Below the pieces are notes generated by a model. That model saw nothing but the letters and a program-made list of their open reading frames with translations. It was not told the DNA's origin and did no database searches. Below, piece by piece: positions 13,258-21,638 of a DNA stretch of 60,024 bases (positions are counted from its first letter, which is position 1; every line of letters begins with the position of its first letter). The DNA is from Nitrospirota bacterium (GTDB lineage Bacteria > Nitrospirota > 9FT-COMBO-42-15 > HDB-SIOI813), in NCBI GenBank assembly GCA_016212215.1, contig JACRGV010000120.1, forward strand, positions 1 to 60,024, given 5' to 3'. The translations under genes were made by a program, and so were the position numbers.

Positions 13258-13290
13258 GTTTCAATCCACGCCCCTGTGCGAGGGGCGAGC
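13258..13290 (-). CRISPR. Single type I-C CRISPR repeat, array otherwise absent
   Basis: The plus strand reads GTTTCAATCCACG followed by CCCCTGTGCGAGGGGCGAGC, a type I-C repeat with an intact hairpin (CGCCCCT against AGGGGCG). Read on the minus strand it ends with the canonical GTGGATTGAAAC. It lies downstream of cas2, where an array is expected, but no second repeat at 65-75-base spacing is found before the YceI gene. It is either a naive one-repeat array or what remains after loss of all spacers. Confidence 0.7.
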
Positions 13291-13472
13291 TTCATCATAA
13301 CTTATTGTATATAATAAATTTTTTTGCTATTTTGTGCGAATCCCATATTTTTCATTGTAAAAATATTCAATTGACAAAGAGCCTTTTTGAAACTTCCCGG
13401 ATTAATTCACTTATTCAACACTGCGAACCATATATAGAAATCTTGTGAACAACAGGTTCGCAACAGCATCTT
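13291..13472 (-). promoter_or_regulatory. Candidate AT-rich CRISPR leader
   Basis: An AT-rich stretch with no gene between a MITE next to cas2 and the single repeat. On the minus strand it lies immediately upstream of the repeat, the position and composition expected of a leader. No leader motif could be verified by eye. Confidence 0.4.
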
Positions 13473-13654
13473 AGGGCTTGCCAAAAAATAACTGTTACAT
13501 CTTGCATCTCATCTCCGTGCCATCTTTGGCCGTGCCTCAATCGCAAAATCCTCAACGTAGTTATTACTACGCCTACGGTTTTGCTCAATCGGCACAACCA
13601 ATTCTGACCCGAATCTGAGCGCAATATCGTTACACTTATTTTTTGACAAACCCT
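13473..13654. mobile_element. MITE-like element, copy 2, inserted at the cas2 stop codon
   Basis: Ends AGGGCTTGCCAAAAAATAAC and TTATTTTTTGACAAACCCT. The interior is divergent but alignable with copies at 12354 and 43085 (shared ACTACGCCTACGGTTTTGCTCAATC). The terminal base overlaps the cas2 TAA (13654-13656). This copy separates cas2 from the leader-like region. Confidence 0.7.
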
Positions 13655-13944
13655 TAAATAATCAACGGCCCCTCCTGATCTATAGCCGCCTTTGCCCCTA
13701 CATGCTCCACGCGATGCTTCCAGTTAGACCCGAGATAGTAAAATCTCAGGCTGTCTTTCTCAGGGTCAATCTCCGAGATTAACCTATTCTTCAACATCGT
13801 CCACTGTGCGGAGTCAACAATACATTCGAACACCGAATACTGTACCCGCTGTCCGTAATCCTTACAGGCACGCGCCACCCTGCGGAGGCGACGCTGCCCC
13901 TTGCCATCGTCGGTGGCAACATCATAACTTACTATTACAAACAT
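13654..13944 (-). CDS. cas2: CRISPR-associated endonuclease Cas2 (type I-C)
   Basis: A 96-residue Cas2: MFVIVSYDVATDDGKGQRRLRRVARACKDYG with the conserved first-strand aspartate (D9), QYSVFECIVD, and the C-terminal LGSNWKHRVEHVGAK typical of subtype I-C. It forms the scaffold of the Cas1-Cas2 integrase. It ends at a MITE but its C-terminus looks complete. A degenerate CRISPR repeat lies 21 bases upstream of its start. Confidence 0.93.
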   Translation of the reverse strand: MFVIVSYDVATDDGKGQRRLRRVARACKDYGQRVQYSVFECIVDSAQWTMLKNRLISEIDPEKDSLRFYYLGSNWKHRVEHVGAKAAIDQEGPLII

Positions 13945-13965: not shown

Positions 13966-13997
13966 CTTTCAATCCACGCTCCCTCGCGGATAGCGAC
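13966..13997 (-). CRISPR. Isolated degenerate CRISPR repeat between cas1 and cas2
   Basis: Plus strand CTTTCAATCCACGCTCCCTC then GCGGATAGCGAC, 32 bases. It keeps the TTTCAATCCACGC half and the terminal GCGAC of I-C repeats, but the hairpin is imperfect. It occupies most of the 63-base cas1-cas2 gap. It may be an off-target integration scar or an old repeat trapped by rearrangement. Confidence 0.6.
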
Positions 13998-14007
13998 GGG
14001 TATTTCC

Positions 14008-15039
14008 TTACTTCCATATAAACGGGGGATAATTATCCATATCCCCGCGCAGGTAACGCGCCATCAGCAATGCCTGCATATGAAAAAGCAGGCCGATTGT
14101 AACCTTCTCCTTAAGGAAGGGATGCAGTATCTCTTCCTGCTTCCGCTTCTGGTAGGCCACCAGAACAGTCTTCCTCGTATCATCATCCATCCACACCGCT
14201 CCTGATTCCTTTTTTTGAAATCCCTTTCCCTGTACCTGACAAAGATTAATCATGGACAGAGCCAGACGGTCAGCAAAGAAAGGACGAAATTCCTCCATAA
14301 GGTCGAGTGCAAGTCCATATCTGCCGGGACGATCCCTGTGCAGGAATCCGACAGCAGGGTCAAGTCCAACAGTCTCAAGAGCCGAACGGACATCGTGCAT
14401 CACAATGGTATAGAGAAATGACAGCAGGCAGTTCACATTATCCAGCGGCGGTCTCCGGCTTCGTTCATGGAATTTGAATTGATCTTTTTGTGAGGTAACG
14501 AGATGATCAAAGACACTGAAGTAGGTATATGCCGATTCTCCCTCGATTCCCCGCAATACATCCAGTTCTTGTTCTGAACTCAATCTTCTCAGATAACCTG
14601 AGAGCCGTTGTGACGCCTGCGAAAGCGCATCCGCATCAATCTTTTCTGAATGATCCCTTATCGCACGCTGAAGCACAGTGCGGGAGTTGGCTATCTTGCC
14701 GGTCAATAGCGCGCGTGCAATTAATGCAGACGTGTTCAGGTCATCCGCCCTGCGGTACTGCTCCCGCCTCAGAAGGACATTGCCGGATACAGGCCCCTGA
14801 ACCTTTGCAAGAAAACCACCGTTCTCTGTGAGAAAACTTATAGCCACACCGCTCTCCGCACAGAATCCCATCAGGAACGGGCTGCAGGATATTTGTCCAA
14901 AGCAGACAATCCCTCCAAGTGTGTGAATAGGTGCGCGCAGACGGACTTCATTGTCCACCTTCACAACGACTGTCTCACCATCCTTAGAAAGATACGCCCC
15001 CTTTGTTGTAACGAAGAGAGTATTTAAATGTTTTTTCAT
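14008..15039 (-). CDS. cas1: CRISPR-associated integrase Cas1 (type I-C)
   Basis: A 343-residue Cas1 with the I-C N-terminus MKKHLNTLFVTTKGAYLSKDGETVVVK, a beta-sheet dimerisation domain, and the helical catalytic domain with VNCLLSFLYTIVMHD, the GLDPAVGFLHRDRPGRYGLALDLMEEFRP block (catalytic His/Asp region) and a YPPFIWK end. It integrates spacers together with Cas2. Its ATG overlaps the stop of the upstream BRO-N/DinD-like gene by 4 bases, so the two are translationally coupled. Confidence 0.95.
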   Translation of the reverse strand: MKKHLNTLFVTTKGAYLSKDGETVVVKVDNEVRLRAPIHTLGGIVCFGQISCSPFLMGFCAESGVAISFLTENGGFLAKVQGPVSGNVLLRREQYRRADDLNTSALIARALLTGKIANSRTVLQRAIRDHSEKIDADALSQASQRLSGYLRRLSSEQELDVLRGIEGESAYTYFSVFDHLVTSQKDQFKFHERSRRPPLDNVNCLLSFLYTIVMHDVRSALETVGLDPAVGFLHRDRPGRYGLALDLMEEFRPFFADRLALSMINLCQVQGKGFQKKESGAVWMDDDTRKTVLVAYQKRKQEEILHPFLKEKVTIGLLFHMQALLMARYLRGDMDNYPPFIWK

Positions 15040-15869
15040 CTTCTTTCCAATCTCTTCCGGCTTTCCGGTTCTGTCAGATAGTTCTCCGGTGACACCACTT
15101 TCTTGCCGGTCTTCTTTTCAAGGTCTTCTCTTGCTTTACCTGCTACTTCTCCTCCCTTGAGCGCCGCATGTTTGTTTTCGTGAAATCCCTTTGCATCATC
15201 AACTTTTGTTATCTCAGTTGTCGCGGCCTCGCCGAGCATTGAAAATATAAGCTCAAGGTCGGTCATGTGATCACGCAGATTCTCACGTTTCAACCCCTTT
15301 AAATTCTTATGCCGGCCTGGGGTGATGCCGAATGCAGCCTTTGCAATCTCAGCGGTGAGCATCTCATATTCCCTTCTCTCTTTGACTTCCCTCTTCTTCC
15401 ACTCATCCGTAAGTTCCTCACGAATAGCAATGCCACGCATCCGTTTCTCTATCCAGTCATCAGAATAGCCTTTGGCCTTATACAATGCCCTTGTCCTTTT
15501 AGTAGCCAGTTCAGGATATTCAATCTCCTGCACCCGCTCGTAGCCTGCCTTTGCCATCCAGCGTTTGAAGGGCTCTGCTTTAGGCGAGGGGATGGATTGG
15601 ATAATGCGAAACATCGTCTCAGTGTTTGCACAGTCGGTTTCGTAATATTTTCCGTCCGATGACTGCATCTTCAGTTGTCCGATTTTTTCGGACAACTCAT
15701 CATACCCCTCTTCAGAAAGCTTTTTCTTTAAGTCACTCCAATACTTTCTTGGTCTCTCCGTACCTGTTAACACCTCGACAATGTCAACAATAGAAAACCA
15801 CCACTCGTCATTATACAGCATCCTCCTGATTTGCTTTCCTTTGAAAACCGCTAAATGTGTTTCCGTCAT
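15036..15869 (-). CDS. BRO-N/DinD-like protein in the cas4 position of a type I-C operon
   Basis: A 277-residue protein starting MTETHLAVFKGKQIRR after a GGGAGGGG ribosome-binding site (ATG at 15869; the frame extends further without support). The N-terminus (FKGKQIRRMLYNDEWWFSIVDIV, about residues 8-30) is a Bro-N domain as in baculovirus/phage BRO antirepressors. The rest (ETDCANTETMFRIIQSIPSP, FKRWMAKAGYERVQEIE, KGYSDDWIEKRMRGIAIR, LEKKTGKKVVSPENYL) matches the bacterial BRO/DinD-like family (E. coli DinD is damage-inducible). Type I-C operons normally carry cas4 here; no RecB-type nuclease motif or four-Cys cluster is present, so this is not a Cas4. The stop overlaps cas1 by 4 bases. A 98-base gap after cas7 leaves room for its own promoter. 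A role in adaptation or DNA-damage coupling is inference only. Confidence 0.8.
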   Translation of the reverse strand: MTETHLAVFKGKQIRRMLYNDEWWFSIVDIVEVLTGTERPRKYWSDLKKKLSEEGYDELSEKIGQLKMQSSDGKYYETDCANTETMFRIIQSIPSPKAEPFKRWMAKAGYERVQEIEYPELATKRTRALYKAKGYSDDWIEKRMRGIAIREELTDEWKKREVKERREYEMLTAEIAKAAFGITPGRHKNLKGLKRENLRDHMTDLELIFSMLGEAATTEITKVDDAKGFHENKHAALKGGEVAGKAREDLEKKTGKKVVSPENYLTEPESRKRLERR

Positions 15870-15967
15870 TTGACCCCTCCCTGCCAGTATAAATATTAAA
15901 GATAACCTTACTCCGCCCTTTACAGAATATAAAATGCTGCAAGGTAGAAAGTAGAAGAAGATCATCT

Positions 15968-16927
15968 TCAGAATACATTCTCTTCCGGCCATTCATTAAC
16001 TTCAATCTCTACCGGGAGATTGGTTTTATCTAATGCAATTGTATAATCTTCCTTCCCTCGCGGCAGTTCTGAATTTTTCCTTACTGTTACTCGCTCAAAT
16101 AATCTCCCTGATAGCTCATTACCCAAATGACTTTTATGTTTAAATATCACCAGTTTTACAGGATTCATTTCTCCTCGTGCAGCAGCATGGTCATTTTCAA
16201 ATGCCTTTATAAGGGCTTCCCAAAGCAGCGTTAAATCATCTGCACAGAATCCTGTTTTTTTAGCATCAACAGCAGATACAAATCCTTTCATGCGGTATAA
16301 TGCATAAGGAATGGTGGCCTTCCTGCCAAAAGTTGATGCAAATTCACGATCTTTTTTGGCTTGGTCATCTCTCTCCTTCTCAGTAGTAACACAGCAACGG
16401 GTTATTGAATGCTCTGCTTGGTAAATGCGATCTTCTGAACGAGCAAAAGTAAATTGCACAGGGCCACGGACCGTACCAGCCCCTCTTATTTTCTCTTTAT
16501 TTTGTTTCTTGCTTTTAGCGACTTCTTCTCCTTCCTCTTCCGACGCTTCACCGCCTGCCTTCTCTCCTGTGCTTAATACCGCACCAAATGTCCTGATATC
16601 GTAATAATCATCACACAGTTTCTTACGCTTTTCTGACGTAGTATTACCCGGCGTTTTGCTAATTATTGCATTTAAATAGCTATCTTCGCCGGTTATATCC
16701 CTTTGCCTTATAAAAATATCATATGGAGATTTTGGGTTCTTATCTTCATACTTCAGTTGCACATAGTTACGCACCTTCCTTTTGATACAAACATCCGTCA
16801 CTAACCCATGCTGATCTTCTGCATCTGCCCTTGGTAGGTTCACTTGATCAGGATCACCATTAGGATTACCGTCCTTTACGTCAAAGAAAAAAACAAAATC
16901 ATACCGATTCTTTACTATCTCGCTCAT
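15968..16927 (-). CDS. cas7: Cascade backbone subunit Cas7 (Csd2, type I-C)
   Basis: A 319-residue Csd2 family protein: YDFVFFFDVKDGNPNGDPDQVNLPRAD near the N-terminus, the RTFGAVLS and RGPVQFTFARSEDRIYQAEHSITR blocks, and GRKATIPYALYRMKGFVSA. Several copies coat the crRNA spacer in the type I-C effector. It follows cas8c by one base. A charged insertion (GEKAGGEASEEEGEEVAKSK) falls where the family has a flexible loop. Confidence 0.93.
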   Translation of the reverse strand: MSEIVKNRYDFVFFFDVKDGNPNGDPDQVNLPRADAEDQHGLVTDVCIKRKVRNYVQLKYEDKNPKSPYDIFIRQRDITGEDSYLNAIISKTPGNTTSEKRKKLCDDYYDIRTFGAVLSTGEKAGGEASEEEGEEVAKSKKQNKEKIRGAGTVRGPVQFTFARSEDRIYQAEHSITRCCVTTEKERDDQAKKDREFASTFGRKATIPYALYRMKGFVSAVDAKKTGFCADDLTLLWEALIKAFENDHAAARGEMNPVKLVIFKHKSHLGNELSGRLFERVTVRKNSELPRGKEDYTIALDKTNLPVEIEVNEWPEENVF

Positions 16928-16928
16928 T

Positions 16929-17327
16929 TTATTCCTCCTCTTTGTTTTCTTTTGATTTTAAGTTATCAAACTGTGCCTGCCTTTGATGATAATATCCGAT
17001 TGCAAACTGTCCTTTTTCTTCTAAAGAAAAAGTGGCGGGCAATTTATTAATATCTATGTCTTTCACCAAATCCTGAAGCTCTTTATCCAGTGTGACCGCA
17101 AGTCCGGGCTTTTCATTCTTCAGTTTCCGAAAATGCTTTGAACTCAAATCGAATAACCGACCGAATGCAGCCGAGGGCAAAGTCAACATGTATGTAAAAT
17201 ATCTCTCCCGAATTCCGGCGTTTCTGTCTCCTAATGCGGCATATTGGACGCTCTCAAGTTTTGCAAAGATTTGCCCACAGACATAAGCCACTGGCCTATT
17301 TCCCTGCTCAATCTTTTCTGTTATCAC
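16929..17327 (-). CDS. cas11c: Candidate internally translated small subunit Cas11c
   Basis: Within cas8c and in the same frame, a GTG at 17327 is preceded by AAAGGGGGTGATTTT, a strong Shine-Dalgarno with a 7-base spacing. Translation from it would give the C-terminal 132 residues of Cas8c, beginning [M]ITEKIEQGNRP. Type I-C systems are known to make Cas11 from an internal start in cas8c, and the size is right (about 120-130 residues). The start is my inference from the ribosome-binding site. Confidence 0.65.
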   Translation of the reverse strand: MITEKIEQGNRPVAYVCGQIFAKLESVQYAALGDRNAGIRERYFTYMLTLPSAAFGRLFDLSSKHFRKLKNEKPGLAVTLDKELQDLVKDIDINKLPATFSLEEKGQFAIGYYHQRQAQFDNLKSKENKEEE

Positions 17328-18710
17328 AAAATCACCCCCTTTATTGTTTCTATTTAAAATTAGTTTGATTAAAGCGGCCCGTTCGGCAGTGACCCCATCT
17401 AAACGGGCTCGCTGAAGTACCTTTGTTAATATCCAGTGCGGCGGGGTACTGTTCTTTAAAGCTATGTTCCATAAGTATGTGGCTACTCTTGCTAATGATG
17501 CACCGTCTTTATCATAACTGCCGTCACTATTTTTTCTCTGACAGCATCTTGCCAGATCATACAGTCGGGAATAATGCGATTGGGTCTTCATTAAATCCGA
17601 ATTATATTCATCAATTGCAATATCCTGAAACCACATTGCGATTGATTTTCTAAATTCAAACAGGCTGGTCTCTATCCAATCCCGCACCGCTATCCTTGCT
17701 GCAGAGCCGGAAAGCGTACATGAATAAAACTGGTCAGGTTCAATATATCTGTTATCCCTTTCAGTGCCTGATGTCACCGATTCAATTAACCTTGCGACAT
17801 CTGCCGGATTCGGTGCTTCAAGGTAGTCAATTTCATCCAATTTTTCATTCTTGCGGGTCCAAAACACCATTGCAGTATCCGATCCGAAATTCCTGCGATT
17901 TGTATATCGGAATTCCTTTTTTTCTTTACCTTTTTTGGTTTTGATTGTAACTTCATTACCTGATGATAAAAACCAATTCAACCCTTCGACATATGTCTTG
18001 GCGCAATTTGTACATACTGAAGAATTATTATTCCCTTTTAGGCAATAGGATTCGAAAGCATTTTCATTATATGAAACCAATGCGCAACCACTTGTCTGTC
18101 CATCAGGGACCTTTTTAATCATGCCGTGAGGAATATCCTCAACAGGATAATCGCTCTTACCGCAAATAGAGCATTGTTTTTGTTTGGTTGATAAAAGTTG
18201 TTTCTGTGCAGTCTCATATTCTGCAATTATTCTCTTTAGAACCTCCGGCTTTTCATGAATACGACTACCTTCAGACTGTATTCTAAAGCCTATATTGCCT
18301 TTTCTGTTCTTCTCATCAGGAATAGCAATTTCAAATTCCTTAAGTGCCTTATCCAATCCATTAACTTTATTTTGCTCATAAAATGCTACAACTGGTTTTA
18401 ACTCATTTAGTTCCTGGTATAGAGCTAATTTCTCCAGAAATAATTTATGTTTCTTTCCTGATACTTCTCCTCCGTAGCAAAACATTTCTTCTGCCTTATC
18501 AAGTAATAGTCTTGCTTTCCCCTTTTTTGCAGTTATAGCTTCAGCAATAGTCTGTTTTTTTTCAAACGATTCAAATTTTTGAAAACCACCATCTTCACTA
18601 ATAACTATCTCCATTGAAATTGGCTCTTCCTTTAATGCATTGTGAACACATTCATTCTCTGTTTTGCCTAACCGGATAGTTTTCCCTAACTCGCTTAATT
18701 CCTTAATCAT
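16929..18710 (-). CDS. cas8c: Type I-C large subunit Cas8c (Csd1)
   Basis: A 593-residue Csd1: a central cysteine region CSICGKSDYPVEDIPHGM with later CTNCAK that probably binds zinc (about residues 178-243), the GGDFVITEKIEQG region, a CGQIFAKLESVQYAALGDRNAGIRERYFTYM segment and a helical C-terminus. It recognises the PAM and recruits Cas3. It overlaps cas5 by 4 bases and precedes cas7 by one. Its 3' part contains a probable internal cas11c start (separate entry). Confidence 0.92.
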   Translation of the reverse strand: MIKELSELGKTIRLGKTENECVHNALKEEPISMEIVISEDGGFQKFESFEKKQTIAEAITAKKGKARLLLDKAEEMFCYGGEVSGKKHKLFLEKLALYQELNELKPVVAFYEQNKVNGLDKALKEFEIAIPDEKNRKGNIGFRIQSEGSRIHEKPEVLKRIIAEYETAQKQLLSTKQKQCSICGKSDYPVEDIPHGMIKKVPDGQTSGCALVSYNENAFESYCLKGNNNSSVCTNCAKTYVEGLNWFLSSGNEVTIKTKKGKEKKEFRYTNRRNFGSDTAMVFWTRKNEKLDEIDYLEAPNPADVARLIESVTSGTERDNRYIEPDQFYSCTLSGSAARIAVRDWIETSLFEFRKSIAMWFQDIAIDEYNSDLMKTQSHYSRLYDLARCCQRKNSDGSYDKDGASLARVATYLWNIALKNSTPPHWILTKVLQRARLDGVTAERAALIKLILNRNNKGGDFVITEKIEQGNRPVAYVCGQIFAKLESVQYAALGDRNAGIRERYFTYMLTLPSAAFGRLFDLSSKHFRKLKNEKPGLAVTLDKELQDLVKDIDINKLPATFSLEEKGQFAIGYYHQRQAQFDNLKSKENKEEE

Positions 18711-19456
18711 ATCTCCGCCTCCCTTTCTTCCCGCTGATTGAAGTCATAAAGCACAGCAGATGTTTCGCTGTCTATTGGCGGCTGGATATGGATGGACTGT
18801 ATCATCTTGTCGTTCTCCGCGACTTCACAGTTCAAAATACCGTTGCGCACTGCCACGTCATGGAAGAATAAGGGTTCAGGCTTTCCATTTGCGTTATAAA
18901 ATATATCGAACAGCATACTCCCAATAGGAATAGTCTCCTGTATTGGTTTTTCAGTGCAATCCGGCTCCATAAATTCAGAAGAAAACTCACGCACACCAAG
19001 ATAGGGTCTGCGCCAGCATTGCCCTTTTTTAACGCGGCGGATAAACATTCCATCATTATCAGCATCAATTCCTTTTCTCCCTATATATTTTTCAGGTTTG
19101 TTTTTATCTGACATTTGCTTCTGATAAATTGACGCTTCAATGATGTATGCAACATTTCTCAAAACTACACTATTGCGCTGGGCACGTTTTTCTTCAATAA
19201 TAATAGGGTTGCGGCCTTGCTTGGTATTAATTTCATTACGTTTAATTGAACAGAATTTTACAGGATTCAAAACTAATATACTTCTTACATACCACTGAAA
19301 CTCCGGCTTCCACAAAATTGAATCAAGAATTCCCCTTGCCGCTGATGGCGTCATGCATGGATACGTCATCCGCTCAACCTTCAGGTCCGGCCTCGTGAAA
19401 CAAGCGAAATCGCCTTTTACCTTAACTCTTACGATGCGATCATCAAGCATATACAC
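18707..19456 (-). CDS. cas5: crRNA-processing subunit Cas5 (Cas5d/Cas5c, type I-C)
   Basis: A 249-residue Cas5d: RVKVKGDFACFTRPDLKVERMTYPCMTPSAARGILDSI at the N-terminus and GVREFSSEF in the middle. In type I-C this protein, not Cas6, cuts the CRISPR repeat RNA and then holds the 5' handle; no cas6 is present, as expected. It is second in the operon, 7 bases after cas3 and overlapping cas8c by 4. Confidence 0.93.
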   Translation of the reverse strand: MYMLDDRIVRVKVKGDFACFTRPDLKVERMTYPCMTPSAARGILDSILWKPEFQWYVRSILVLNPVKFCSIKRNEINTKQGRNPIIIEEKRAQRNSVVLRNVAYIIEASIYQKQMSDKNKPEKYIGRKGIDADNDGMFIRRVKKGQCWRRPYLGVREFSSEFMEPDCTEKPIQETIPIGSMLFDIFYNANGKPEPLFFHDVAVRNGILNCEVAENDKMIQSIHIQPPIDSETSAVLYDFNQREEREAEI

Positions 19457-19463
19457 CTCCTGA

Positions 19464-21638
19464 TTATACGATTAATTTATCCGCCTCAATTGGAGCTACA
19501 GAGATACCTGTTTCAGGATCATAATTTCCATACCATACTTTAAACCCCTGAGGCATTGTTTTACACATATTGCCATTTTGAAAAATAAAATGTTGATATA
19601 CCTGTACAGTAAATGTCTGCATCTTCCGGAAATCATCTCTTGACAGAAACTCCTTATACTCAAGCAAATGAAGCAATTGCCTGCTTTCATCGCTGTAGTT
19701 ATAAATATAAAGCCCTTCGGTAGTTTCCTGTATTATGCGATAACTGTCATTTACTGTCTTAAAGTTAAATTGCCTGCGTGCTTCATTGATATTGAATTTA
19801 TCCGGATCAACATAGAGCTTTATTACTTGAGCATAGTATTCATTGAATATCGTATGCCCTTGTAATTGATATATGTCTCGTTTAATCAGCTCCTCAGCAT
19901 GGCCAGCGCACGCAGCATAAGTCTTATCCGGCATCCCACCGTCGTGCAATTTAAACAGAAATACTTTCCCGCCCATCTCGCCTAAAGTGCCTTCACGATT
20001 ACAACGACCTGCAGACTGAATAACCGCCTCAAGCGGTGCCATAGCACGAAACACTACCGGAAAATCAAAATCAACACCTGCTTCAATAAGCTGTGTAGAA
20101 ACTACCAGTATTTTTCTCTTTGCTTCCAGATCATGCCTGATATTTTTGATTACTACTTTTCGATGCAACGGACACATTGACGTTGATAAATGATATTTCT
20201 TTTCCCAATCACCACGATTTTTTGTGTAATTGAAAAACTCTAAGGCGGCTTTTTTGGTGTTAAATATAACAAGCGTGGAAGCATCCGCCTGCGTTACGGT
20301 CTCAAACAACCCCATGCAATCAATCGGATTTAAATCGTTTAATAAGTCATAGTTAACACGCCTTGTTTTCTCATAAAGCATTGAAGGGTTGTCAATTAAG
20401 GGCTGAATTGTACTTATGCCATCAAACCCCTGCCTCTTCTCAAAAGCAGGCTGTGTTGCAGTACAAAACAAAAAGGATGTCTTCATAACTGCCTGAACAT
20501 CTTTTAATATTTGCAGTGTAGGCAGTATCACTTCCTTTGGAAGTACCTGAACCTCGTCAAATATCACCACAGCTTCAGCTATGTTATGAATCTTGCGGCA
20601 CTGTGATGGCCTGTTACTGAAAAGGGATTCAAAGAATTGAACTGTAGTTGTTACAATAATAGGGTAATCCCAATTTTCACACGCCAATTTCTTGCGCTCC
20701 TGAATAGAAGAATAACTCTCAGACACATATATATCATCAAGGTCGCCTTCAATGTAACTGGAATGATGTTCAAGAACCCATTCGTCTCCAAAGATGCCTT
20801 TTAAAACCTGGGCGGTCTGGTCTATGATGTTTATATAAGGAAGGACTATTATTATTCGTTTTAGGCCATTCTTTTTCGCATGACGTATTGCCCATGCCAT
20901 AGATGTAAGAGTTTTACCCATCCCGGTCGGAAGTGATAATGAATAAAATCCACAGGGCATTTCTGCTTTCTGAAGTACTTGATTGCGCGCATCATTTCGT
21001 AATTGATTGATTTCACCCTCTTTAGATTTCTTCAAGAATTCCTCTTCCAATTTGCTTACCATAGAGTCTGCAGGCAATCCAGAACCGATACGCATATTAA
21101 ATTTATCCTGCTCAAAATGCTCTTCTGTTGAAAGCCAATCGCTATCCGTTAAAGCGCTAAAAAGGTACCTGATAAAAACTTCACGTTGTGATTTTTCAGG
21201 AAATGCCAAAGAATTCGGTGCTTGAATATTTGCCTCATTAACTCCTGTGTCGTTAATAAAAGATTGTTTAATATTTGTAAATTCAGAAACTTCTCCCCGT
21301 TTGAAACATTCCGTATCAATTTTCCAAGCCGAGTTATCCGGCAAACCCTTATGATGACCGTCAATAGCAATTGATGCCTCAATAAGTTTACGAATTCTTG
21401 CATATCCCGCGCCCCATGAAGCGTGAGGAACGCTGCCGCGTTTCCCTCCTTTATCAAGATACCTCTGGAACTCAAGCTGATATTTACCGAGATCATGCAA
21501 TAAACCCGCTATCCTGAAAATCGTCTTGTAGGTTTCATCACATGCAAAGGATTCCGCCAATTCTGCAGTTTGGCGCAGATGTTCAGACAAGCTATGTTTC
21601 TCTTTACGACTATTTTCTGAATGAGCGTAATATTTCAT
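19464..21638 (-). CDS. cas3: CRISPR helicase-nuclease Cas3 with fused HD domain
   Basis: A 724-residue Cas3: HD nuclease domain first (GLLHDLGKYQLEFQRYLDKGG, about residues 44-64, and SHASWGAG-like HASWGAG, then DGHHKGLPD), then an SF2 helicase with Walker A LPTGMGKT (about 238), DEVQ motif II (about 364), FCTATQP motif III, and QSAGRCNREG motif VI. It unwinds and degrades target DNA recruited by Cascade. It is the first gene of the operon; divergent to it is the cytochrome gene with a 243-base shared upstream region. Confidence 0.95.
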   Translation of the reverse strand: MKYYAHSENSRKEKHSLSEHLRQTAELAESFACDETYKTIFRIAGLLHDLGKYQLEFQRYLDKGGKRGSVPHASWGAGYARIRKLIEASIAIDGHHKGLPDNSAWKIDTECFKRGEVSEFTNIKQSFINDTGVNEANIQAPNSLAFPEKSQREVFIRYLFSALTDSDWLSTEEHFEQDKFNMRIGSGLPADSMVSKLEEEFLKKSKEGEINQLRNDARNQVLQKAEMPCGFYSLSLPTGMGKTLTSMAWAIRHAKKNGLKRIIIVLPYINIIDQTAQVLKGIFGDEWVLEHHSSYIEGDLDDIYVSESYSSIQERKKLACENWDYPIIVTTTVQFFESLFSNRPSQCRKIHNIAEAVVIFDEVQVLPKEVILPTLQILKDVQAVMKTSFLFCTATQPAFEKRQGFDGISTIQPLIDNPSMLYEKTRRVNYDLLNDLNPIDCMGLFETVTQADASTLVIFNTKKAALEFFNYTKNRGDWEKKYHLSTSMCPLHRKVVIKNIRHDLEAKRKILVVSTQLIEAGVDFDFPVVFRAMAPLEAVIQSAGRCNREGTLGEMGGKVFLFKLHDGGMPDKTYAACAGHAEELIKRDIYQLQGHTIFNEYYAQVIKLYVDPDKFNINEARRQFNFKTVNDSYRIIQETTEGLYIYNYSDESRQLLHLLEYKEFLSRDDFRKMQTFTVQVYQHFIFQNGNMCKTMPQGFKVWYGNYDPETGISVAPIEADKLIV

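What the first reader, a model, noticed from the sequence alone, without database searches (positions are those of the whole stretch)
15036..15869. BRO-N/DinD-like gene takes the place of cas4 in a type I-C CRISPR adaptation module
Seen: the operon order is cas3-cas5-cas8c-cas7-X-cas1-cas2, and X overlaps cas1 by 4 bases (ATGA). X has a Bro-N N-terminus and DinD-like body, with no Cas4 nuclease or cysteine cluster. Known: type I-C normally encodes cas4 here, and Cas4 trims prespacers and selects PAM. Inferred: X may act in prespacer handling, regulate adaptation as an antirepressor, or link acquisition to DNA damage. It may equally be a passenger that displaced cas4.
Basis: partly seen in the sequence, partly recalled or inferred. 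Interest (0 to 1): 0.85.

Follow-up and report, generated by a model that had tools for sequence, protein, structure and literature searches.

The report
BRO/DinD-like gene at CRISPR module border
A DNA-binding gene of unknown job sits where the 'cutting' and 'memory' halves of CRISPR operons meet, in many bacteria and in two CRISPR types; here the usual neighbour cas4 was recently deleted, so the gene did not replace cas4 but is an overlooked CRISPR companion that may handle broken DNA ends.

Summary
The operon is as described: cas3-cas5c-cas8c-cas7c-X-cas1c-cas2, with a 4-nt ATGA overlap between X and cas1. X has a Bro-N domain and no Cas4 match. The cas4-replacement idea fails. A 63-nt cas4 stub (first ~20 codons) still overlaps the end of cas7, and X coexists with an intact cas4 in the 14 other I-C border loci read (one exception, L088, is decaying). 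The window's operon is a chimera: effector plus stub from one lineage, X-cas1-cas2 from another. X itself is more interesting than claimed. Of 122 distinct homologues, 40 lie in cas operons, both type I-C and type I-E (which never has cas4), at the effector/adaptation border or the operon start. Of these, 37, the window's included, fall in one lineage that switches repeatedly between I-C and I-E. X is under strong purifying selection and almost absent from viruses. Its predicted fold significantly matches only DdrC, a DNA-binding, DNA-protecting Deinococcus protein. Outside CRISPR it sits beside restriction-modification genes. The same slot holds RhuM, Fic, YhcG, IVP and toxin-like genes, so a passenger role remains possible. 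Best guess: a non-enzymatic DNA-end/ssDNA-binding accessory.

The parts
15036..15869 (-). X: Bro-N + DinD-like/DdrC-like protein, 277 aa
15916..15978 (-). cas4 stub: first ~20 codons of a type I-C cas4 (MYSEDDLLLLSTLQHFIFCKG), overlapping the cas7 stop by 11 nt as in relative L092
15870..15915 (-). junction between the cas4 stub and X; homology to the L092-like effector side ends at ~15934, homology to the L088-like X-cas1-cas2 side begins at 15877
14008..15039 (-). cas1 (type I-C), overlaps X by 4 nt
13654..13944 (-). cas2
15968..16927 (-). cas7 (type I-C)
16929..18710 (-). cas8c
18707..19456 (-). cas5c
19464..21638 (-). cas3
13258..13291 (-). lone CRISPR repeat; 31/31 nt identical to array repeats of relative L149
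13967..14000 (-). lone, imperfect CRISPR repeat in the cas1-cas2 gap; 87% identical to array repeats of L092 and L073

Best explanation
X belongs to a lineage of Bro-N/DinD-like proteins dedicated mainly to type I CRISPR-Cas operons (I-C and I-E). It is encoded at the border between the effector and adaptation modules or at the operon start, and is usually translationally coupled to its neighbour. It did not replace Cas4: in this genome an effector block from one lineage was joined to an X-cas1-cas2 block from another, and cas4 was cut to a 20-codon stub at the joint (shown from sequence, barring mis-assembly). Function (inferred): X is a non-enzymatic DNA-end/ssDNA-binding protein of the DdrC/DinD type. 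It would bind DNA ends or fragments made by Cas3 (or by restriction enzymes elsewhere), protecting or bridging them so that they feed Cas1-Cas2 or do less harm to the host. Its exchangeable N-terminal segment would set DNA or partner specificity.
For: Location: 39 of 121 distinct homologues, plus the window, have cas genes within three genes. They include cas6e-X-cas1e, cas7-X-cas4-cas1, cas4-X-cas1 and X-cas3. Lineage: on a tree of the body alone (residues 80-265), 37 of the 40 CRISPR-linked X fall in one group of 45 (support 86/90), with 10 I-C/I-E switches; cas/other needs 11 changes against 34 in shuffles. Selection: dN/dS about 0.03 against L149 and 0.07 for L174/L178; X is 88% identical to L149 where Cas1 is 80%. 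Fold: the AlphaFold2 model (pLDDT 86) matches only DdrC in the PDB (E 2.4e-6); DdrC binds ssDNA and dsDNA, shields them from nucleases, anneals and circularises DNA (PMC5436757). Non-CRISPR neighbours are mostly restriction-modification genes. cas4 stub and chimera. N-terminal cassette exchange: the two segment types need 21 changes on the body tree (at least 7 forced by starred branches).
Against: The same slot carries RhuM, Fic, YhcG/DUF1016, IVP, PIN and DUF5615 genes, so it may simply tolerate inserts. X is absent from most I-C and I-E loci of the phylum. Some copies are fragments (L077, L079, L085). The DdrC match is of fold, with TM-score only 0.3-0.5 over the whole chain. No DNA-binding or acquisition data exist. 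The homologue sample favours close relatives of the window's X.
Confidence: 0.45

Rival explanations
1. X is a passenger or selfish/addiction-type cargo gene. The effector/adaptation border tolerates inserts, and X moves among defence operons (CRISPR, R-M) without working with Cas proteins.
For: Recognised cargo genes occur only at the border: 24 of 86 border junctions, 0 of about 194 others. Gaps over 400 bp: 26/79 at the border against 3/175 inside. Cargo families are the usual R-M companions: RhuM, Fic, YhcG. X occurs in R-M operons. X is fused to Fic in L175.
Against: A long-lived CRISPR-dedicated lineage that keeps to CRISPR while switching between I-C and I-E; strong purifying selection; repeated tight or ATGA coupling; near absence from viruses.
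Confidence: 0.35
2. X is a DNA-binding regulator (antirepressor-like) that controls cas expression, for example in response to infection or DNA damage.
For: Bro-N domain; viral structural matches are antirepressors and repressor-domain proteins; X is often first in the operon, upstream of cas3; ORF6N genes occur in this genome's I-B operon.
Against: The most conserved part is the C-terminal body, not the Bro-N segment; X is often buried in the middle of the operon between overlapping genes, unusual for a regulator; no operator was identified.
Confidence: 0.13
3. X functionally substitutes for Cas4 (prespacer trimming, PAM choice) in this genome.
For: Position next to cas1 and absence of an intact cas4 in the operon; the same X-cas1-cas2 block without cas4 in L088 of the same family.
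Against: X lacks nuclease motifs and the cysteine cluster; X coexists with cas4 in 14 other I-C loci; X sits upstream of cas1 in type I-E; the cas4 stub shows recent loss; cas1 of L088 is broken; the array is missing in the window genome; two other cas4 genes exist in this genome.
Confidence: 0.04
4. X is a phage-derived inhibitor or domesticated phage antirepressor with no role in immunity.
For: Bro-N is typical of phage antirepressors; PHROG_15286 exists.
Against: Only 4 of 50,697 phage records and 1 IMG/VR contig carry a relative, against more than 300 genome stretches.
Confidence: 0.03

Closest known systems
PADLOC candidate family PDC-S13 (PDLC04920) and PHROG_15286
   Same: Full-length match (E 1.5e-118 and 1.6e-89); X is a member by sequence
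   Different: These are unnamed families (a candidate defence gene, unknown function). No link to the CRISPR adaptation module was found in the papers searched
E. coli DinD
   Same: Bro-N-type N-terminus and related C-terminal body (hhalign E 9.9e-6)
   Different: Only distantly alike (probability 82%, residues 152-277). DinD is a chromosomal SOS gene; X lies in defence operons. RecA-filament inhibition by DinD is recalled knowledge (Uranga 2011), not checked here
DdrC of Deinococcus radiodurans
   Same: Only significant PDB fold match (E 2.4e-6); non-enzymatic DNA-damage DNA binder (PMC5436757)
   Different: About 15% identity; DdrC is described as restricted to Deinococcaceae and induced by radiation through DdrO/IrrE
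RhuM-family genes in cas operons (B. fragilis II-C between cas1 and cas9, PMC5704556; here between cas4 and cas1 in six I-C loci)
   Same: Unexplained DNA-binding-type cargo next to cas1
   Different: Different family (PF13310); X is not RhuM
Cas4 of type I-C
   Same: Gene position next to cas1
   Different: No sequence relation; a Cas4 stub is present beside X

Membership tests
Cas4 | PF01930 / RecB-like nuclease match | tested here: not met
   No hit in Pfam, NCBIfam or PADLOC Cas4 models
Cas4 | Fe-S cysteine cluster | tested here: not met
   One cysteine in X (sequence)
Bro-N (BRO) domain proteins | PF02498 above gathering score at the N-terminus | tested here: met
   52.6 bits, residues 13-107, cutoff 25.6
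PADLOC PDC-S13 | Full-length HMM match | tested here: met
   E 1.5e-118, residues 1-272 of 277
PADLOC PDC-S13 | Demonstrated anti-phage activity | not testable with these tools
   Candidate family only; no paper found
DinD | Sequence homology over the DinD C-terminal body | tested here: inconclusive
   hhalign E 9.9e-6, probability 82%; single-sequence comparison E 0.028
DinD | LexA/SOS induction; modulation of RecA filaments | not tested
   Needs experiment; no LexA-box search made
DdrC | DdrC-like two-domain fold | tested here: met
   Foldseek E 2.4e-6, probability 1.0; whole-chain TM only 0.3-0.5
DdrC | ssDNA/dsDNA end binding and nuclease protection | not testable with these tools
   Needs purified protein
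CRISPR-associated (cas operon) accessory gene | Recurrent placement in cas operons across lineages and subtypes | tested here: met
   40 of 122 homologues; I-C and I-E; 37 of 40 in one lineage
CRISPR-associated (cas operon) accessory gene | Functional requirement in adaptation or interference | not testable with these tools
   Needs genetics
Type I-C CRISPR-Cas | cas3, cas5c, cas8c, cas7c, cas1c, cas2 | tested here: met
   NCBIfam models above cutoff for cas5c, cas8c, cas7c, cas1c, cas2 and the Cas3 core; PADLOC Cas3c
Type I-C CRISPR-Cas | Intact cas4 and a CRISPR array | tested here: not met
   cas4 stub only; two lone repeats

The most novel reading that the evidence does not exclude
X is an undescribed accessory of the type I adaptation machinery, independent of Cas4 and shared by I-C and I-E. 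It would be a DdrC-like DNA-end-binding protein with an exchangeable N-terminal cassette that captures or shields Cas3-made fragments for Cas1-Cas2, and a related version would serve restriction-modification systems.
Probability: 0.2. Interest if true: 0.8.

Novelty: new variant of a known kind. Interest (0 to 1): 0.58.

Why it matters
How DNA fragments from Cas3 and restriction enzymes reach Cas1-Cas2 without being degraded is still an open question. A DNA-end-binding-type protein that recurs at the effector/adaptation border of two CRISPR subtypes, and beside restriction genes, is a directly testable candidate. Even if X is only a passenger, the data show a defined cargo slot in type I operons and how module shuffling can delete cas4.

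Tried and rejected
Cas4 replacement: rejected (stub; coexistence of X and cas4; type I-E). Phage origin or anti-CRISPR role: disfavoured. Sequence search of the PDB found no relative. A single-sequence DinD comparison was too weak, so a DinD profile was built. The 1575-aa 'fusion' in L114 is a scaffolding artefact: a run of N joins a purine-synthesis gene to X. Several I-E gaps over 400 bp at cas5e|cas1e come from an unrecognised cas6e and were removed from the gap test. Paper searches for Bro-N/DinD with CRISPR or PDC-S13 found nothing specific, but subscription papers are not held.

Full report
Observation. On the minus strand the window encodes cas3, cas5c, cas8c, cas7c, X, cas1c and cas2. 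X (15869-15036, 277 aa) overlaps cas1 by ATGA. It matches Bro-N (PF02498, E 7.5e-14), PHROG_15286 (E 1.6e-89) and the PADLOC candidate PDC-S13 (E 1.5e-118), and nothing in NCBIfam. X occurs once in this genome.

cas4 was lost, not replaced. The 99-nt gap between cas7 and X holds the first ~20 codons of a type I-C cas4 (15978-15916: MYSEDDLLLLSTLQHFIFCKG), overlapping the cas7 stop by 11 nt exactly as in relative L092. Its first 19 residues are 15/19 identical to other Cas4c N-termini; shuffled versions reach at most 9. DNA homology to the L092 effector runs from 21519 to ~15934, while homology to the X-cas1-cas2 block of L088 starts at 15877. Effector proteins cas3, cas5 and cas7 are 73-79% identical to L092 (cas8 55%), but its Cas1 is only 65%; the closest Cas1 proteins (80-90%) come with effectors only about 21-46% identical. 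The operon is therefore chimeric, with the joint inside cas4. In the closest relative by X, L149, the order is cas7-X-cas4-cas1-cas2 followed by a CRISPR array whose repeat is identical over 31 nt to the lone repeat at 13258 in the window.

X coexists with cas4 elsewhere. I-C border loci with X and an intact cas4: L149, L164, L170, L173, L174, L175, L176, L177, L178, L183 (X before cas4) and L073, L184, L195, L207 (X after cas4). The only other cas4-less case, L088 of the same family, has no effector and a broken cas1. X also sits between cas6e (or cas5e) and cas1e in type I-E, which has no cas4: L109/L201, L128, L129, L150, L157, L160, L161, L166, L168, L179, L194, L196. In L109/L201 and L161 both junctions are 4-nt overlaps.

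How widespread and how specific. A scan of 84,980 species genomes gave 80 best loci, from Nitrospirota, Deltaproteobacteria, Elusimicrobia, Omnitrophota, CPR bacteria and archaea. With the phylum sample this made 121 distinct homologues, 39 with a cas gene within three genes; the window's X makes 40 of 122. Positions are the effector/adaptation border or the operon start (before cas3 or cas5); none was seen inside the effector block. Most non-CRISPR neighbours with a recognised domain carry restriction-modification domains: ResIII, N6_Mtase, DEAD, Eco57I, MmeI, SNF2. X is almost absent from viruses: 4 of 50,697 phage records and 1 IMG/VR contig.

A CRISPR-dedicated lineage. On the full-length tree, cas/other labels need 10 changes against 34 in shuffles. 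The N-terminal segment (about residues 33-77) comes in at least two types that change 21 times on a body-only tree, which suggests cassette exchange. On the body tree 37 of the 40 CRISPR-linked X, the window's included, fall in one group of 45 (support 86/90), with 10 I-C/I-E switches; the window's nearest kin are L150 (I-E) and L149 (I-C). The sample is biased towards the window's X, so fractions should not be read as global frequencies. The body is strongly conserved, and dN/dS is about 0.03 against L149 (synonymous sites near saturation) and 0.07 for L174/L178.

The border is a cargo slot. In a sample chosen by cas1 and not by X (56 distinct loci), recognised cargo genes lie at cas4|cas1 (10/36), cas7|cas4 (7/28), cas3|cas4 (2/6), cas6e|cas1e (4/12) and cas5e|cas1e (1/4), and at no other junction (0 of about 194). 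Since the cargo list was drawn up from the border, a family-free test was added: gaps over 400 bp occur at 26/79 border junctions and 3/175 others (Fisher p 4e-12), though loci are not independent. Besides X the slot holds RhuM, Fic, YhcG, an IVP-like four-helix protein, PIN and DUF5615 genes (the PIN and DUF5615 names are by eye). L175 has X fused to a Fic-like domain (by eye). This genome's own I-B locus carries ORF6N (antirepressor-type) genes at its cas6|cas1 border and between cas7 and cas5.

Function. The AlphaFold2 model (pLDDT 86, pTM 0.64) significantly matches only DdrC in the PDB (E 2.4e-6); viral matches are Bro-N, KilA-N and repressor-domain proteins. The C-terminal body is distantly DinD-like. 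DdrC binds ssDNA and dsDNA, protects DNA from nucleases, anneals strands and circularises linear DNA (PMC5436757). What unites the contexts of X (I-C, I-E, restriction-modification) is enzymatic cutting of DNA. The most economical function is therefore a non-enzymatic DNA-end or ssDNA binder that handles the products. Shown: location, lineage, selection, fold similarity, cas4 loss. Inferred: DNA-end binding, and any role with Cas1-Cas2 or host protection. The main rival is a passenger gene in a permissive slot.

Novelty. The family is already listed as a candidate defence gene (PDC-S13), and RhuM beside cas1 has been reported in type II-C (PMC5704556). No report of a Bro-N/DinD-like gene at the effector/adaptation border of type I-C and I-E was found in the papers held, a limited library.

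Noticed in passing
window 13258-13291 and 13967-14000: Two lone I-C-type repeats and no array in the genome. The one between cas1 and cas2 was found in no relative's cas1-cas2 gap, and the two resemble arrays of different relatives (L149; L092/L073). Array collapse in assembly is possible.
   Followed up: partly
L255:7987-8508 and L255:12225-12746 (own genome, contig C93): Type I-B operon of the same genome carries two ORF6N-domain genes, one at the cas6b|cas1 border and one between cas7 and cas5.
   Followed up: partly
X residues ~33-77 (window about 15773-15639): N-terminal segment of X exists in exchangeable types (..PRKYWSDL.. versus ..SGYIKDMRRRD..) that change many times on the tree of the body, suggesting cassette swapping.
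   Followed up: partly
L069, L076, L078, L079, L084, L086, L195, L179: RhuM-family genes sit just upstream of cas1 in I-C and I-E operons, often overlapping cas1 by 4 nt.
   Followed up: partly
L071-L075, L078, L079, L082, L083, L085, L166, L170, L207: IVP/S23-like four-helix-bundle genes recur just before cas4, or before cas1e, at the same border slot.
   Followed up: no
L175:4034-5794; L178:959-1864; L166:7588-7803: Fic-family genes recur beside X at the border; in L175 X is fused in frame to a Fic-like domain.
   Followed up: no
L257 (own contig C73): Separate cas4-cas1-cas2 module with a 15-repeat array; its Cas4 could in principle act in trans.
   Followed up: partly
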